Source: a virus
IMG/VR virus record: IMGVR_UViG_3300048837_000406
Location: 1 to 28,243 of that record
DNA: 28,243 nucleotides
Reading direction: 5' to 3' (one strand)
The translations under genes were made by a program, and so were the position numbers. The notes below the pieces were generated by a model. That model made no database searches and was not told the origin of the DNA. It saw nothing but the letters and a program-made list of their open reading frames with translations. Shown here in pieces: positions 405 to 17,046 of the stretch (within the stretch, counting starts at the first letter, position 1; the number at the start of each line of letters is the position of its first letter).

Positions 405-634
405 GTGGCCACGCCATGCTCGCCTTCGCCTTCCTCGCAGGCGCCGGCTTCGGCGCGGTGATCGCCTGGGCCTGGTTCGAGCGCTACGGCCGGCCGCGCG
501 AGATCGAGATCAAGGTCGACAAGGCCATGCTATCGCAGCTCAACGAGGCGCTGGTCATGGCCTGGCTCGATTCGCGCGGCCTGGTGTGGATGCCGAAGGG
601 CGTCGACTTCAAACCGAAGGTGCCGAAAGCATGA
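401..634 (+). CDS. Small membrane protein between gemA and mor
   Basis: A 77-residue protein that starts at a GTG overlapping the gemA stop. Residues about 6-25 form one hydrophobic segment rich in Ala, Gly and Phe (AMLAFAFLAGAGFGAVIAWA), followed by a charged cytoplasmic-type tail of about 50 residues. Small single-pass proteins of this kind are common between gemA and mor in Mu-like phages. I recognise no domain with a known function. Its stop overlaps the mor start by ATGA, which argues for translational coupling with the regulator. Confidence 0.7.
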   Translation: MSGHAMLAFAFLAGAGFGAVIAWAWFERYGRPREIEIKVDKAMLSQLNEALVMAWLDSRGLVWMPKGVDFKPKVPKA

Positions 635-1098
635 TGCACCCGCTCACGCCGGATGACATCGAGATCGTCGGTCATCTGCTGCCGCCGTCCGCGCACGTGC
701 TCATCAAGCATTTGGGCGTGGCGCCGGCGCTCGCGCTGCTCAACACCTGGCCCGGCGTGCAGTTCCAGATGCCGCGCCGCCCGGATGCGAATCCTGCCGG
801 CGCGAAAAAATGGAAGTTCATCGCCTCGATCATGGGGGAGGAGGCGACCGGCAAGCTTGCCGCTTACGCAGGCGGCGACGTGCTTGAGATTCCTATGTGC
901 CGCGCGGCGCGCGACGAGTTGCGTCACCGCACCATCCGGGCCGAGTTCGATGCGCTCACCCTCGTGGAAGGCATCAGCAAGTCGCAGGCCGTGCAGATCC
1001 TCGGTCTCAAGTACGGCCTGGTATGGCGTCAGATGGAAAAAATAATCGATCGCCCCGACGCCGCAGCTCCGGCTGCGGTGCAGGAGAGCCTGTTCTGA
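631..1098 (+). CDS. mor: Mor-family transcription activator (middle/late operon regulator)
   Basis: A 155-residue protein of the Mor/C family, which activates phage middle or late promoters as a dimer. The N-terminal half (LTPDDIEIVGHLLPPSAHVL) and the central helices resemble the Mor dimerisation region. Residues roughly 110-140 (EGISKSQAVQILGLKYGLVW) form the predicted helix-turn-helix. The ATG at 631 was chosen over an in-frame ATG at 586 because it gives the ATGA overlap with the preceding gene and begins where the family homology begins. In Mu two paralogues exist, Mor and C, with C immediately before lys. Here a single Mor-type gene occupies that position, so it is the natural candidate to act on the repeated elements at 1133, 9658 and 16218. 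That last point is inference. Confidence 0.88.
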   Translation: MMHPLTPDDIEIVGHLLPPSAHVLIKHLGVAPALALLNTWPGVQFQMPRRPDANPAGAKKWKFIASIMGEEATGKLAAYAGGDVLEIPMCRAARDELRHRTIRAEFDALTLVEGISKSQAVQILGLKYGLVWRQMEKIIDRPDAAAPAAVQESLF

Positions 1099-1132
1099 TA
1101 TATTTCACGCGCCCCGATTGATCCGGCGGCGA

Positions 1133-1187
1133 CCCCCGACCCGCTTCCCCCTGCGACATCCGTAGCGCGCGCGCGAAACTCGCGCGC
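1133..1187 (+). promoter_or_regulatory. Repeated late-control element, copy A (before lysis genes)
   Basis: A 20-bp C-rich box, CCCCCGACCCGCTTCCCCCT, lies at 1133-1152. A 16-nt gap follows, then a perfect dyad with 8-bp arms and a 3-nt centre (GCGCGCGA / TCGCGCGC, 1169-1176 and 1180-1187). The dyad ends directly before the endolysin ATG, and there is no Shine-Dalgarno sequence. Near-identical copies occur at 9658 and 16218. The position corresponds to Mu Plys, so a late promoter or operator is the leading interpretation. No conventional sigma-70 -10 box is visible. Confidence 0.6.
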
Positions 1188-7454: not shown

Positions 7455-8238
7455 CATCGCGCCGGACGGCCAGGCCGTCATCAGCGCCCGACTGCCGTTC
7501 CAGGAGCAGATCGACTTCTTCCGCCGCAAGCTCGGCCTGCCCAGCGACCGCTGGGACGACATCCAGCGCGCCGCCCACGACCGCGGCTTCATCGTCGCCG
7601 GCGCCCAGAAGGCCGACCTGCTGCAGGACATGAAGGACGCCGTCGATCGCGCCATTGCCGACGGAACCACCCTGGAGCGCTTCCGCGAAGACTTCGAGGA
7701 GATCGTCGGCCGCCACGGCTGGCACGGCTGGACCGGCGAGGATTCCGAGGCCGGCCGCGCCTGGCGCACCCGCACCATCTACCTGACCAACCTCGCCACG
7801 TCCTACGCCGCCGGCCGGCTCAAGCAGCTGCGCGACCCGGACCTCAAGCGCCTGCGCCCCTACTGGATGTACAAGCATTCGGATTCCGTGCTGCACCCGC
7901 GCCCGCTGCACGTCTCCTGGAACGGCCTCACGCTGCCGGCCGACCACAAATGGTTCAGGGCGCACTATCCGCCCAACGGCTGGGGCTGCCAGTGTCGCGT
8001 CGTCGCCGTCAGCCGCGCCCAGGCCGAACGCATGGGCGGCCGCATCGTCGAAGAAGCCCCGGATGACGGAGAGGACCCGAAGACAGGTCTGCCCGCCGGC
8101 ATCGACAAGGGCTTCGACTACATGCCCGGCGACCGCGCCGACAGCAGCCTGGCGGATCTCGTGCGGGAAAAGCTCGTCCGCCTGACGCCGCAGATCCGCG
8201 CCGCGCTCGCCGACTACGCCGCGCGGGTGCTCAAATGA
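7441..8238 (+). CDS. Minor head protein, Mu gpF / SPP1 gp7 family
   Basis: A 265-residue head morphogenesis protein that starts at GTG 7441. The C-terminal half carries the family signature: ATSYAAGRLKQL, then YWMYKHSDSV, HVSWNGLTLPADHKWF and HYPPNGWGCQCRVVAV. In SPP1 gp7 and Mu F, this protein associates with the portal and is present in a few copies per head, with roles in DNA ejection and assembly. The family signature with conserved His and Cys residues is intact. It overlaps the zinc-binding gene upstream and the G-like gene downstream (ATGA). Confidence 0.9.
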   Translation: MPLLDIAPDGQAVISARLPFQEQIDFFRRKLGLPSDRWDDIQRAAHDRGFIVAGAQKADLLQDMKDAVDRAIADGTTLERFREDFEEIVGRHGWHGWTGEDSEAGRAWRTRTIYLTNLATSYAAGRLKQLRDPDLKRLRPYWMYKHSDSVLHPRPLHVSWNGLTLPADHKWFRAHYPPNGWGCQCRVVAVSRAQAERMGGRIVEEAPDDGEDPKTGLPAGIDKGFDYMPGDRADSSLADLVREKLVRLTPQIRAALADYAARVLK

Positions 8239-8756
8239 ACGAGCCGCTCTCGATCCGCATCGACGACGCCGATCTGCAGGCCGCGCTCAATCTCCTGATC
8301 CAGCGCTCCGGCCGACTGCGGCCGGCCCTGGTCGCGATCGGCGAGAACCTGGCCGAGTCGACAAGGCGCCGCTTCGAGACCTCGACCGGGCCGGACGGCC
8401 GCCGCTGGGCGCCCAACAGCCGAGTCACCATCGAGCGCTTCCTCGATCGCCCCGGCGCCTACAGCAAGAAAACCGGCAAAATCTCCGCCAAGGGAGCCAC
8501 CCTGGCGACGGGCAAGAAGCCCCTGGTCGGTCGCACGCGCCTGCTCGGCAACCAGATCGTCTGGCAGGCAGGCGGTACGTCCGTGGCCATCGGCTCCAAT
8601 CGGATCCAGGCCGGCGTGCAGCAGTTCGGCGCCGCCGCCCGCCAGTTCGGCAAGGCCCCCTGGGGCGCCATCCCAGCCCGCCCGTTCCTGGGCATTTCGA
8701 CCCAGGACAAGGCCGACATTCTGGAAACGGTTGCGGATTGGCTGGCTGGCGGCTGA
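8235..8756 (+). CDS. Virion morphogenesis protein (Mu gpG-like)
   Basis: A 173-residue protein of the phage virion morphogenesis family (Mu G, P2 S type). Recognisable blocks are FETSTGPDGRRWAPNS near residues 46-61, LVGRTRLLGNQIVWQ around residue 95-110, and the C-terminal ARPFLGIS motif. Family members act at head-tail joining or tail completion. The gene ends the first head operon: its stop is followed at once by a terminator-like hairpin and a cargo gene, not by the protease gene as in Mu. Confidence 0.88.
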   Translation: MNEPLSIRIDDADLQAALNLLIQRSGRLRPALVAIGENLAESTRRRFETSTGPDGRRWAPNSRVTIERFLDRPGAYSKKTGKISAKGATLATGKKPLVGRTRLLGNQIVWQAGGTSVAIGSNRIQAGVQQFGAAARQFGKAPWGAIPARPFLGISTQDKADILETVADWLAGG

Positions 8757-8760
8757 AAAC

Positions 8761-8795
8761 ACCGGCCGCTTAAAACGGCCTGTGGGCGGTTTTTT
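8761..8795 (+). terminator. Rho-independent terminator-like hairpin after gpG-like gene
   Basis: Four bases after the gpG-like stop, GGCCG (8764-8768) can pair with CGGCC (8776-8780). Alternatively ACCGgCC (8761-8767) can pair with GGCGGT (8785-8790). A run of six T follows at 8790-8795. The stem plus U-tract predicts at least partial termination of the head operon before the moron. Confidence 0.6.
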
Positions 8796-8949
8796 CGGGC
8801 GACTGGCTACCCACGCCCATCCGGCAGGCCGATACCTCCGTTAAACCCCCGTTAAAAACGGCCGTAGCGGCATTGCGAATCCCGGTTGTCTGGCCGGAAT
8901 GCGGGGTTTGACATTGTCAAGCCGGTTTTGGGCGTGTAATGTCCGGCCG
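8796..8949 (+). promoter_or_regulatory. Moron upstream region with palindromes and weak promoter-like boxes
   Basis: This non-coding stretch is richer in A and T than its surroundings. It holds two CCGTTAAA repeats, the second forming CCGTT-AAA-AACGG, and a 13-bp palindrome TTGACA-T-TGTCAA at 8908-8920. The right arm TTGTCA (8914-8919) is 17 bp from TAATGT (8937-8942), a weak -35/-10 pair. TTGACA itself is 21 bp from TGTAAT, which is too far. The palindrome overlying the -35 looks like an operator. If the boxes are real, the transcript would start within a few bases of the ATG at 8950. Confidence 0.45.
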
Positions 8950-9657
8950 ATGAGCGACTGGCTTGATCGGCTGAAATGGGGCCTGCCTGCGGTTCTTGCC
9001 GTGGCCGGCCTGCTTTTTGCCGGAAACTGGTATCTGGAAGGTCGCGCCGAGGCAAAGCTGGCAGAAAGCGTAGCGCGCGAAGCGACCGAGCGCCTGAGCG
9101 ATGCGATCGGTTATTTCTCGGAAGACAAGGGGATCACCCAAAGCGATTTGATTGTCAAGGCGGCCGGGCATGCCACCGAGGTGGGCAAGCTAAGGCTGCG
9201 CGTCAAGTTGGCCGGGGTGGCTCGTAATGAAGCGCGCATGCTGGCCGTGACAAACTATCTCGATGCTGCCGAGACCGCCCTGCGCGAGGCACAAAACCTG
9301 TTGCGTCGCCGCGTCGCTTTCAATGCGGCCATCGCCGGCGCAAATCGTATGGTGAAGGGCGCGGAGCGGTCCGTGGGAGTCATGGAGGCGGAACGCGCCA
9401 GTATCGCCTCTGGTCGCGGTGGTGACGCCGCCTACGTCTCCGCGCTCGGCGCTTCCGGCGCCGCATCGATCCAGACCGGCATCGCGGACAACCTGGTCGC
9501 CGAGGCCAGGGCGGCGCGGGCCGCGCTCGACCAGGCGGCGAGCGATTACAATGCCGCCATGAGCCGCGTTGCCGAGCGGGCCGCGTCTGCTGCGGCCTAC
9601 GTGCCGCAGGATGCCTTGCTGATGCCGAATCAGCTCGGCAAGACCTCTCTCCGCTAA
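8950..9657 (+). CDS. Membrane-anchored helical protein, probable moron (unknown function)
   Basis: A 235-residue protein from the ATG at 8950 (MSDWLDRLKWGLPAVLAVAG). The upstream in-frame ATG at 8899 is rejected because it would place the palindromic promoter-like DNA inside the gene. A single membrane helix at about residues 11-27 is followed by some 200 residues of Ala/Glu/Arg-rich predicted helix and coiled coil (for example EAKLAESVAREATERLSDAI and DNLVAEARAARAALDQAASD), probably periplasmic. There are no cysteines. It sits between the G-like and protease genes, which are adjacent in Mu, with its own terminator and promoter-like region upstream. That is moron architecture, suggesting expression from the prophage. 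Superinfection exclusion or envelope alteration are possibilities only; I recognise no family. Confidence 0.7.
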   Translation: MSDWLDRLKWGLPAVLAVAGLLFAGNWYLEGRAEAKLAESVAREATERLSDAIGYFSEDKGITQSDLIVKAAGHATEVGKLRLRVKLAGVARNEARMLAVTNYLDAAETALREAQNLLRRRVAFNAAIAGANRMVKGAERSVGVMEAERASIASGRGGDAAYVSALGASGAASIQTGIADNLVAEARAARAALDQAASDYNAAMSRVAERAASAAAYVPQDALLMPNQLGKTSLR

Positions 9658-9712
9658 CCCCCGAACCGCTTCCCCCTCACCGATTCCGCGCGCGCCCGGC
9701 AGCATGCCGGGC
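9658..9712 (+). promoter_or_regulatory. Repeated late-control element, copy B (before protease/head genes)
   Basis: The box CCCCCGAACCGCTTCCCCCT lies at 9658-9677, beginning on the base after the moron stop codon. A 16-nt gap containing GATTCC follows, then a perfect dyad GCCCGGCA-gca-TGCCGGGC (9694-9712) ending directly before ATG 9713. Box, gap length, dyad dimensions and distance to ATG are identical to copy A, although the arm sequences differ. The position corresponds to Mu PI. Confidence 0.6.
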
Positions 9713-10822
9713 ATGAGCGATCCCAAACCGATTCAGATCTTCCGGCCCGGTCGGCATGTCGCCATGTCCGGCGATGTGCTCGACTTCACCGAAGCCGATC
9801 TCGCCGCCAGTGCCGCCGCCTACGACCCCGCCAAGCATGAGGCGCCCATCGTCGTCGGCCATCCGAAGCTCGACGCTCCTGCCTACGGCTGGGTGAAGTC
9901 GGTTGCCTACTCCAGCGCTCCCGGCGGCCTGGAAGCCGCCCCCCACCAGGTCGAGCCCGCCTTCGCCGAAATGGTCGCCGCCGGCCGCTTCAAAAAGGTC
10001 TCGGCCAGCTTCTTCTCGCCGACCTCGCCGCAGAACCCCGTCCCCGGCGTGTGGTATCTGCGCCACGTCGGCTTCCTCGGCGCCACGCCGCCGGCCGTGA
10101 AGGGGCTGCGCGCCCCCGATTTCGCCGAGGGCGGGGAGGGCGTCGTCGAGTTCGCCGACTGGGCGGCGCAGCAGAACGCCGGCCTGTGGCGGCGCATGCG
10201 CGATTTCCTCATCGCCCAGTTCGGCCTGGAGAAGGCCGACACCGTCATCCCCGACTACTCCATCGGCACGCTCGAAGACGCCGCCCGCACCGAGGCTGTG
10301 CCGATGTCCGCTTTTTCCGAACCACCCCCCAAGGAGGCCGTAGTGACCCCTGAACAGAAAGCCGCGCTGGAGGCCGAGAACGCCCAGCTCAAGCAGCAAA
10401 TCGCCGACAGCGCCGCCCGCGACAAGGCGTCCGCCGCCGCCGCACGCCACGCCGAGCATGCCTCCTTCGCCGAGGCGCAAGTGACCGCCGGCCGCCTCAC
10501 CCCCGCCCAGCGCGACGTGGCCGTGGCCGCGCTCGACGCCCTGAGCGAAGCCCCGGTCGAGTTCGGCGAGGGCGACGCCAAAAAGCCGCTCACCGAAGCC
10601 TTCAAGGAATTCCTCGCCGCGCTGCCCAAGCAGGTCGAGTTCGGCGAAGTGGCCGGCAAGGGCAGCGCCGGCGCCGGCGCCGCCACAGCCGAGTTCGCCG
10701 CCCCGGCGGGCTTCAGCATCGACGGCGATGCCGCCGCGCTGCACCGCAAGGCGCTGGCGCACCAGGCGCAGCACAAGACCGACTACCTGACGGCCGTCAA
10801 GGCCGTCTCCACCCACAGCTAA
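9713..10822 (+). CDS. Capsid maturation protease with C-terminal scaffold (Mu gpI-like)
   Basis: A 369-residue Mu-I-type protease/scaffold. The N-terminal domain shows the family blocks AAAYDPAKHEAPIVVGHPK and FKKVSASFF around residues 30-110, with His and Ser positions (GHP; SASF) where the family has its catalytic residues. The C-terminal third is an Ala/Glu/Lys-rich helical scaffold (LEAENAQLKQQIADSAARDK onward). I prefer the ATG at 9713 over ATG 9704, which lies in the centre of the dyad and would break the spacing shared with copy A. No Shine-Dalgarno is visible at either. The scaffold part is probably also made separately from an internal start. Confidence 0.88.
   Translation: MSDPKPIQIFRPGRHVAMSGDVLDFTEADLAASAAAYDPAKHEAPIVVGHPKLDAPAYGWVKSVAYSSAPGGLEAAPHQVEPAFAEMVAAGRFKKVSASFFSPTSPQNPVPGVWYLRHVGFLGATPPAVKGLRAPDFAEGGEGVVEFADWAAQQNAGLWRRMRDFLIAQFGLEKADTVIPDYSIGTLEDAARTEAVPMSAFSEPPPKEAVVTPEQKAALEAENAQLKQQIADSAARDKASAAAARHAEHASFAEAQVTAGRLTPAQRDVAVAALDALSEAPVEFGEGDAKKPLTEAFKEFLAALPKQVEFGEVAGKGSAGAGAATAEFAAPAGFSIDGDAAALHRKALAHQAQHKTDYLTAVKAVSTHS
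10343..10822 (+). CDS. Nested in-frame scaffold protein (Mu gpZ-like)
   Basis: Within the protease gene, a near-perfect Shine-Dalgarno AAGGAGG (10331-10337) stands five bases before an in-frame GTG at 10343. This start gives a 159-residue protein beginning VTPEQKAALEAENAQLKQQI, exactly where the scaffold-type coiled coil starts. In Mu (I/Z) and lambda (C/Nu3) the scaffold is likewise the C-terminal part of the protease gene made from an internal start. The ribosome site in the middle of a gene whose own start has none is strong support. It would fill the prohead core and be degraded by the full-length protease. Confidence 0.7.
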   Translation: MTPEQKAALEAENAQLKQQIADSAARDKASAAAARHAEHASFAEAQVTAGRLTPAQRDVAVAALDALSEAPVEFGEGDAKKPLTEAFKEFLAALPKQVEFGEVAGKGSAGAGAATAEFAAPAGFSIDGDAAALHRKALAHQAQHKTDYLTAVKAVSTHS

Positions 10823-12275: not shown

Positions 12276-12524
12276 ATGACCAAGGCGAAATCCGTCAAGA
12301 ACGTCGCGCCTGCCGCGGTCAAGAACGTCGCGCCTGCCGCGGTCGAGAACGTCGCGCCTGCCGCGGTCGAGCGCGTCGCGCCGGCCGCGGTCGATCGCGT
12401 CGCCCTGGTCGCCGTCGAGCCGATCCGCATCGACGGCGTGGATGTGCAGCCGGGCGAGTCCTTCGAGGCCGCGCCCGGCGACGCCGACAGCCTGGTGGCC
12501 GCCGGCGCTGCCAAGAACGAGTAA
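12276..12524 (+). CDS. Small repeat-bearing protein downstream of capsid gene (Mu gp35 position)
   Basis: An 82-residue protein in two parts. The N-terminal half is five near-identical octapeptides of the type KNVAPAAV or ERVAPAAV, encoded by a 24-bp tandem repeat. The C-terminal half (IRIDGVDVQPGESFEAAPGD, then SLVAAGAAKNE) looks like the small domain found in the gp35-position proteins of Mu-like phages. The repeat could form an extended or helical stalk. The function is unknown, probably a minor structural or head-associated role. It starts two bases after the capsid stop. Confidence 0.65.
   Translation: MTKAKSVKNVAPAAVKNVAPAAVENVAPAAVERVAPAAVDRVALVAVEPIRIDGVDVQPGESFEAAPGDADSLVAAGAAKNE
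12294..12413 (+). repeat. Five-copy 24-bp tandem repeat
   Basis: Units begin at 12294, 12318, 12342, 12366 and 12390 with a GTC codon. The first three are almost identical (core AACGTCGCGCCTGCCGCG) and the last two diverge progressively. The period is a multiple of three, so copy-number change would alter the protein without frameshift. Confidence 0.9.
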
Positions 12525-16210: not shown

Positions 16211-16273
16211 CCCCCGACCCCCGACCCGGTTCCCCCTGCTGCCATTCCCCGCGCGCGCGTAGGCTGGGCGCGC
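16211..16273 (+). promoter_or_regulatory. Repeated late-control element, copy C (before tail genes)
   Basis: CCCCCGACCCGGTTCCCCCT lies at 16218-16237, preceded by an extra partial CCCCCGA at 16211. A 17-nt gap containing CATTCC follows, then an imperfect dyad at 16255-16273 (six of eight positions pair, one as G-T). Unlike copies A and B, the gene starts about 38 bp further on with a proper AGGAGA ribosome site. The position corresponds to the Mu promoter that starts the tail genes. Confidence 0.55.
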
Positions 16274-16311: not shown

Positions 16312-17046
16312 ATGGCCACGCTTAGCTATATCGGCAAGGGCAGCATCTACATCGCCAAGGCCGGCGATCCGCTCATGCGCATCGGCAACACCTCCAAGCT
16401 CGACTTCGCCGTCGAGGAGGAGAAGAAGGAGCTGATGGACTACGAGAACCCCGGCGGCGGCGTCGCCGACTCGGTGACGCGCGTCAAGAGCGTCAAGCTC
16501 TCCCTCACGGTGCACAAGCTCTCTGCCGAGAACCTGGCGCTGGCGCTGCGCGGCGCTTCCGCCGTGGTCGCCGGCGGCGCCGTGACGGACGAGTCGCACG
16601 CCAACGTGCAGGCCGGCGGCCTGGTGGTCTTCGACAAGACGCCGGACACCTCCATCGCCTACGTCGTCACCAACTCCGGCGCCACCGTCACCTATACGGA
16701 AGGCACGGATTACATCAAGCGCCGCGCCGGCCTGGAAATTCCCGCCGGCTCGACCATCGCCGACGACTCCACCATCCTGGTCGATTACACCGCGCTCGCC
16801 GCCGTCAAGGTCGAGGCGCTGACCAACGTCGGCGAGGAAGTGGCCTTGGTGTTCGACGGCATCAACGAGGCCAACGGCAAGCCCATGCTGGTCGAGGCCT
16901 TCCGCGTCAAGCCCGGCGCGGCGAAGGGCTGGAGCCTGATCGGCGACGACTTCGCGGCCCTGGAGATCGAGGCCGACGTGCTCAAGGACGAGACGATCAC
17001 CGGCACCGGCCTGTCGCAGTACTTCAAGGCGCGGATGGCGAGCTAA
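16312..17046 (+). CDS. Major tail tube protein
   Basis: A 244-residue protein and the first gene after element C, with a strong ribosome site (GACAGGAGACACGAC). The start (MATLSYIGKGSIYIAKAGDP) and the strand-rich body with LSQYFKARMAS at the end fit a siphophage tail tube subunit. A central block around IAYVVTNSGATVTYTEGTDY looks like an added Ig-like insertion. The following chaperone and tape measure genes support this assignment. There is no sheath gene beside it, unlike Mu. Confidence 0.82.
   Translation: MATLSYIGKGSIYIAKAGDPLMRIGNTSKLDFAVEEEKKELMDYENPGGGVADSVTRVKSVKLSLTVHKLSAENLALALRGASAVVAGGAVTDESHANVQAGGLVVFDKTPDTSIAYVVTNSGATVTYTEGTDYIKRRAGLEIPAGSTIADDSTILVDYTALAAVKVEALTNVGEEVALVFDGINEANGKPMLVEAFRVKPGAAKGWSLIGDDFAALEIEADVLKDETITGTGLSQYFKARMAS

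What the first reader, a model, noticed from the sequence alone, without database searches (positions are those of the whole stretch)
8757..9657. Moron with its own terminator and operator-like palindrome between head genes
The G-like and protease genes are neighbours in Mu. Here a membrane-anchored, cysteine-free helical protein of unknown family is inserted. A stem plus T6 terminator lies before it and a TTGACA-T-TGTCAA palindrome lies over a weak promoter. Element B starts one base after its stop. This is the signature of prophage-expressed cargo, and so a candidate new exclusion or envelope function.
Basis: partly seen in the sequence, partly recalled or inferred. Interest (0 to 1): 0.7.

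Follow-up and report, generated by a model that had tools for sequence, protein, structure and literature searches.

The report
Prophage cargo gene between head genes
A Mu-like phage carries an extra gene for a probably membrane-anchored protein, with its own promoter, in the slot between two head genes where Pseudomonas relatives keep anti-CRISPR genes, so it is probably cargo used while the phage lies dormant; its exact job, perhaps blocking other phages, is not shown.

Summary
The moron reading is largely supported, with corrections. A 235-aa, cysteine-free, helix-rich ORF (8950-9657) lies between Mu G-like and I-like head genes. Homologues (76-81%) occur only in three closely related IMG/VR contigs, in the same slot, under purifying selection (dN/dS 0.17-0.20). 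In 36 of 45 Mu-like phages compared the slot is short (19-324 bp); in the others it holds unrelated genes, including a superinfection-immunity (PF14373) protein. In phage JBD30 it holds AcrF1/Aca1: this is the known anti-CRISPR locus. 'Element B' is one of three late-promoter boxes per phage (before the amidase, protease I and tail genes), each exactly 22 nt from a -10-like hexamer: probably Plys, PI and PP under the Mor-family activator. The cargo gene has no such box. It has a conserved TTGTCA-17-TAATGT promoter ending 7-8 nt before the start codon, so an activator-independent, probably leaderless transcript is predicted. Corrections: the terminator precedes the gene and belongs to the G unit; the palindrome is not conserved in the homologues. 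It reflects a -35 shared with a divergent promoter, which in relatives drives an sRNA-Xcc1-like RNA. Function is unproven; phage exclusion at the inner membrane is the best guess.

The parts
586..1098 (+). Mor-family activator gene, candidate late activator (C/Mor-like)
   Evidence: PF08765 Mor 7.3e-10; lies just upstream of the first late box
1132..1187 (+). putative Plys: box ACCCCCGACCCGCTTCCCCCT, 22 nt, -10-like GAAACT, 7 nt, ATG of amidase (1188)
8235..8756 (+). Mu G-like virion morphogenesis / tail completion gene (left neighbour)
   Evidence: PF05069 7.8e-23, phrog_26
8757..8796 (+). terminator-like hairpin plus T6, end of the G transcription unit (possibly bidirectional)
   Evidence: GC-rich hairpins at the same place after G in L002 and L003
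8836..8864 (-). tandem TTTTTAACGGGGGTTTAACGG motif, recurrent in G|I slots of Mu-like phages (function unknown)
   Evidence: 9-17 fold enrichment of TTTAACG words in slots
8908..8920 (.). palindrome TTGACATTGTCAA; right arm is the conserved -35, left arm not conserved in the homologous loci
8914..8942 (+). cargo promoter: -35 TTGTCA (8914-8919), 17 nt, -10 TAATGT (8937-8942), 7 nt before ATG
   Evidence: invariant in W, L002, L003; no late box nearby
8950..9657 (+). cargo (moron) gene, 235 aa, predicted N-terminal membrane anchor and long helices
9657..9712 (+). putative PI ('Element B'): box ACCCCCGAACCGCTTCCCCCT, 22 nt, -10-like CAGCAT (9700-9705), 7 nt, ATG of I
9713..10822 (+). Mu I-like head maturation protease/scaffold (right neighbour)
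   Evidence: phrog_976 1e-129
16217..16265 (+). putative PP: third late box, 22 nt, -10-like TAGGCT, before tail gene 16312

Best explanation
ORF 8950-9657 is cargo (a moron) in the G|I slot of a Mu-like phage, the homologue of the anti-CRISPR locus of Pseudomonas Mu-like phages. The slot is a boundary between two late transcription units: the lys-to-G unit ends at the hairpin after G, and the I unit starts at an activator-dependent promoter (PI) whose box begins at the cargo stop codon. The cargo gene has its own ordinary sigma-70-type promoter without that box, so it should be transcribed without the late activator, i.e. in the lysogen, as a leaderless mRNA starting at or near its ATG. The product is predicted to be held in the inner membrane by residues 11-29, with a helical domain of about 200 residues in the periplasm. 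It most likely acts there to protect the lysogen, best guess by blocking DNA entry of other phages. Shown by sequence: slot, patchy distribution, conserved promoter, three late boxes, purifying selection. Inferred: lysogenic expression, leaderless start, topology, exclusion function (about 0.35 on its own).
For: Same slot in all homologues; neighbours G and I adjacent elsewhere. Slot is short (19-324 bp) in 36 of 45 phages and holds unrelated genes in the rest. JBD30 has AcrF1+Aca1 there; literature: between protease/scaffold and gpG homologues, expressed from the prophage (PMC4704812); RGP G (PMC4378225). L025 has a PF14373 Imm_superinfect protein there, 1.3e-15, behind a promoter block sharing GATTCT...GTTGTCAAGTGAGC with L002. 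Promoter TTGTCA-17-TAATGT-7/8-start invariant in three phages while upstream DNA is diverged; the pattern occurs once in the window and 0.0 times on average in simulated sequence. Late boxes: three each in the window, G005 and G006, two in the fragment G007, none in the reversed-pattern control; each exactly 22 nt before the -10-like hexamer. Mu's late promoters are lys, I, P and mom, with the activator site upstream of -35 (PMC4461284). dN/dS 0.17-0.20; GC3 0.75-0.82 against 0.88-0.92 for F, G and I.
Against: No transcript data. TAATGT matches TATAAT at 3 of 6 positions only, and the generic promoter scan did not list it. Gene and slot have no tested function in this phage. Hydropathy of the anchor is borderline. 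AlphaFold confidence is low (pLDDT 57), with no significant fold match. No terminator after the gene was found, so read-through into the I unit is expected.
Confidence: 0.65

Rival explanations
1. Counter-defence cargo (anti-CRISPR or anti-restriction) acting during infection, as in the same slot of P. aeruginosa Mu-like phages.
For: Identical genomic slot with AcrF1/Aca1 in JBD30 and the literature; own promoter.
Against: No aca/HTH gene in the window or the L002/L003 slots; the protein has a likely membrane anchor and is 235 aa, unlike the small soluble anti-CRISPRs known to me; no PADLOC or Pfam hit.
Confidence: 0.15
2. Accessory virion or lysis protein of this phage clade, expressed late by read-through from the lys-G unit.
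For: Lies among head genes on the late strand; conserved about as well as G among the three phages (76-81% against 73-75%); terminator statistics modest.
Against: Own conserved promoter without the late box; absent from other Mu-like phages; extra unrelated genes on the opposite strand between it and G in L002/L003.
Confidence: 0.2
3. Envelope-modifying or other lysogenic-conversion protein that benefits the host without excluding phages.
For: Probable membrane anchor, cargo architecture, purifying selection.
Against: No enzymatic family; long helices with a conserved Gly/Ala/Ser-rich stretch (residues 158-177) suggest binding rather than catalysis.
Confidence: 0.2

Closest known systems
Anti-CRISPR locus (AcrF1/Aca1 etc.) between G and I of P. 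aeruginosa Mu-like phages (JBD30; RGP G)
   Same: Same slot, independent promoter, variable cargo, flanked by the same head genes
   Different: No aca regulator, unrelated larger and probably membrane-anchored protein, promoter at the start codon
Membrane-associated superinfection exclusion proteins (HK97 gp15 moron; Imm family PF14373; from memory TP-J34 Ltp and Tuc2009 Sie2009)
   Same: Prophage cargo, likely inner-membrane anchor; a PF14373 protein occupies the same slot in L025
   Different: No family match to PF14373; the others were not compared by sequence here; function untested
Mu late promoters Plys, PI, PP (activator C)
   Same: Three boxes at the lys, I and tail positions, activator box just upstream of the -35 region, one Mor-family gene
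   Different: Box sequence ACCCCCGANCCNNNTCCCCCT (not compared with the Mu C site); two of the three predicted leaderless

Membership tests
moron (autonomous phage cargo gene) | inserted between genes that are adjacent in relatives | tested here: met
moron (autonomous phage cargo gene) | own promoter | tested here: met
   conserved TTGTCA-17-TAATGT in three phages; activity not tested
moron (autonomous phage cargo gene) | own terminator after the gene | tested here: not met
   only an upstream hairpin found; none listed just after 9657. 'Moron' is therefore used in the loose sense of a separately transcribed inserted cargo gene
moron (autonomous phage cargo gene) | expression from the prophage | not testable with these tools
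   needs RNA-seq of a lysogen
anti-CRISPR operon | aca HTH gene next to the cargo | tested here: not met
   no second ORF in the window slot; none HTH-like in L002/L003
anti-CRISPR operon | location between G and I homologues | tested here: met
   (JBD30) and window annotation
PF14373 superinfection immunity protein | profile match | tested here: not met
   no Pfam match at E<=1
Mu-type late promoter (Element B) | repeated activator box upstream of lys, I and P units | tested here: met
   binding by the Mor-family protein not tested

The most novel reading that the evidence does not exclude
In this phage clade the G|I slot is a swappable cassette site with a shared divergent promoter block: one side drives an sRNA-Xcc1-like RNA and small genes, the other drives phage-exclusion proteins, of which the 235-aa protein is a new inner-membrane exclusion family made from a leaderless mRNA in the lysogen.
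Probability: 0.25. Interest if true: 0.65.

Novelty: new member of a known kind. Interest (0 to 1): 0.45.

Why it matters
It extends the best-known anti-CRISPR slot of transposable phages to environmental phages whose relatives lie mainly in betaproteobacterial genomes, shows that the slot holds unrelated cargo (including a superinfection-immunity protein) between two late promoters, and gives a simple sequence rule (no late box, good -35, -10 at the start codon) for picking out genes likely to be expressed from the silent prophage.

Tried and rejected
Palindrome as operator: left arm not kept in L002/L003, and 27 such palindromes occur in the window. Terminator as the gene's own: it is upstream. 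An upstream in-frame start (8899): in L002 the equivalent ATG frame hits TAG and is shifted by one base, so the conserved block is promoter, not coding. Homology searches that found nothing: phages tblastn, genome contigs with the cargo alignment, PDB, Pfam, PHROGs, NCBIfam, PADLOC. 798 searched genomes gave only partial matches of 22-25 bits, which I did not follow. AlphaFold model too weak for fold search. Cargo as mimic of the tape measure protein: no similarity. Scan of viral contigs with the 14-mer GTTGTCAAGTGAGC: 70 hits, too short to mean anything.

Full report
What the window is. The window is an IMG/VR virus record of 28,243 bases, a Mu-like phage fragment: Mor-family gene, amidase, portal (Portal_Mu), F-like, G-like, protease I and tail genes. 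The cargo ORF 8950-9657 encodes 235 aa without cysteine. Pfam, NCBIfam and PADLOC list no match for it, and PHROGs nothing better than E 0.19.

Homologues. Only three IMG/VR contigs encode relatives: L002 (76%), L003 and L004 (81%), with L003 and L004 nearly identical. tblastn of 50,697 phage records gave none. A scan of genome contigs gave none, and 798 genomes of related bacteria gave only partial matches of 22-25 bits. All homologues sit between G and I. dN/dS is 0.17-0.20, so the protein is maintained; GC3 is 0.75-0.82 against 0.88-0.92 in F, G and I.

The slot. I aligned G and I profiles to all fetched loci. In 45 distinct phages with both genes found in order, the gap is 19-324 bp in 36 and 533-2216 bp in 9. 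The long ones hold non-homologous genes: DUF4145 (L008, 1.2e-12), Rha (L053, 1.8e-18), and in L025 (a Sterolibacterium MAG) a Bro-N-like gene, an HNH-like gene (both below their cut-offs) and a PF14373 superinfection immunity protein (1.3e-15); the ORFs in L034, L040 and L069 have no family. In JBD30 the slot holds AcrF1 and Aca1. The literature places the anti-CRISPR genes between the protease/scaffold and gpG homologues as an independent module expressed from the prophage (PMC4704812) and names the region RGP G (PMC4378225). The slot is therefore a known cargo site. Mu's central gyrase site also maps near genes G and I (PMC10052514).

Element B and the late promoters. The sequence starting at the cargo stop codon recurs three times in the window: before the amidase (1132), before I (9657) and before the tail gene at 16312 (16217). 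Contigs G005 and G006 also carry three copies each and the fragment G007 two, with no hits to the reversed control pattern; where the flanking genes were checked they are the same amidase, I and tail genes. In all nine copies inspected the box ACCCCCGANCCNNNTCCCCCT (G005 P differs at two positions) is followed after exactly 22 nt by GAAACT (lys), CAGCAT (I) or TAGGCT/TAGTCT (P). At lys and I the ATG follows 7 nt later (8 in G005 I). [quoted passage not shown] I infer Plys, PI and PP, activated by the Mor-family protein.

The cargo promoter. Between the slot's diverged DNA and the start codon, TTGTCA-17 nt-TAATGT is identical in the three phages, with the start codon (ATG or GTG) 7-8 nt after the -10. 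A start-codon-linked pattern of this kind occurs once in the window and averaged 0.0 in simulated sequence. There is no late box. I infer a transcript that does not need the late activator and begins at or near the start codon. The promoter is inferred from conservation; no transcript was measured.

The palindrome and terminator. TTGACATTGTCAA is present, but L002 and L003 have ATGGCG in place of the left arm; L025 has TTGACG. In L002 and L003 the reverse complement of the conserved -35 region, TTGACA, is the -35 of a divergent promoter TTGACA-17-CAGAAT. That promoter leads to an RNA matching Rfam sRNA-Xcc1 (42.2 and 48.8 bits; 53.6 in L025, above the cut-off of 53; 6 of 23 pairs with compensatory changes) and then to small genes. 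The window has lost or never had this arm. So the symmetry is best explained by back-to-back promoters, not by an operator. The hairpin plus T6 directly follows G, as GC-rich hairpins do in L002 and L003; it probably ends the G unit and insulates the cargo. No terminator was listed just after the cargo.

The protein. Residues 11-29 are the best membrane segment (hydropathy 1.52). AlphaFold gives long helices at low confidence (pLDDT 57); no fold match is significant. Residues 158-177 (Gly/Ala/Ser-rich) are fully conserved in the three phages. By analogy with membrane-anchored exclusion proteins, and because a superinfection immunity protein uses the same slot in L025, I rate phage exclusion as the most likely function at about 0.35, with envelope change, counter-defence and a virion or lysis role as rivals.

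Noticed in passing
L002:5773-5858 (-), L003:5766-5851 (-), L025:8840-8925 (-): sRNA-Xcc1-like RNA (RF02221; 42.2, 48.8 and 53.6 bits, cut-off 53) in the G|I slot behind a divergent promoter and followed by small minus-strand genes; in Xanthomonas this RNA travels with symE in integron cassettes (PMC12444791).
   Followed up: partly
window 8836-8864 (-); slots of L002, L003, L008, L020, L028, L045, L047: Tandem TTTTTAACGNNNGTTTAACG-type motif enriched 9-17 fold in G|I slots (two of the counts, in L002 and L003, lie inside the cargo gene). Could mark the central gyrase site of Mu-like phages; untested.
   Followed up: partly
window 1132, 9657, 16217: Three copies of a late-promoter box with a fixed 22-nt spacing to a -10-like hexamer; amidase and protease I appear to start 7 nt after the -10, so may be leaderless.
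   Followed up: yes
L025:9093-9560: Superinfection immunity domain (PF14373) plus zinc ribbon in the same slot of a Sterolibacterium prophage.
   Followed up: partly
window 12294-12413: Five 24-bp in-frame repeats (VKNVAPAA-type) in the small ORF after the major capsid gene.
   Followed up: no
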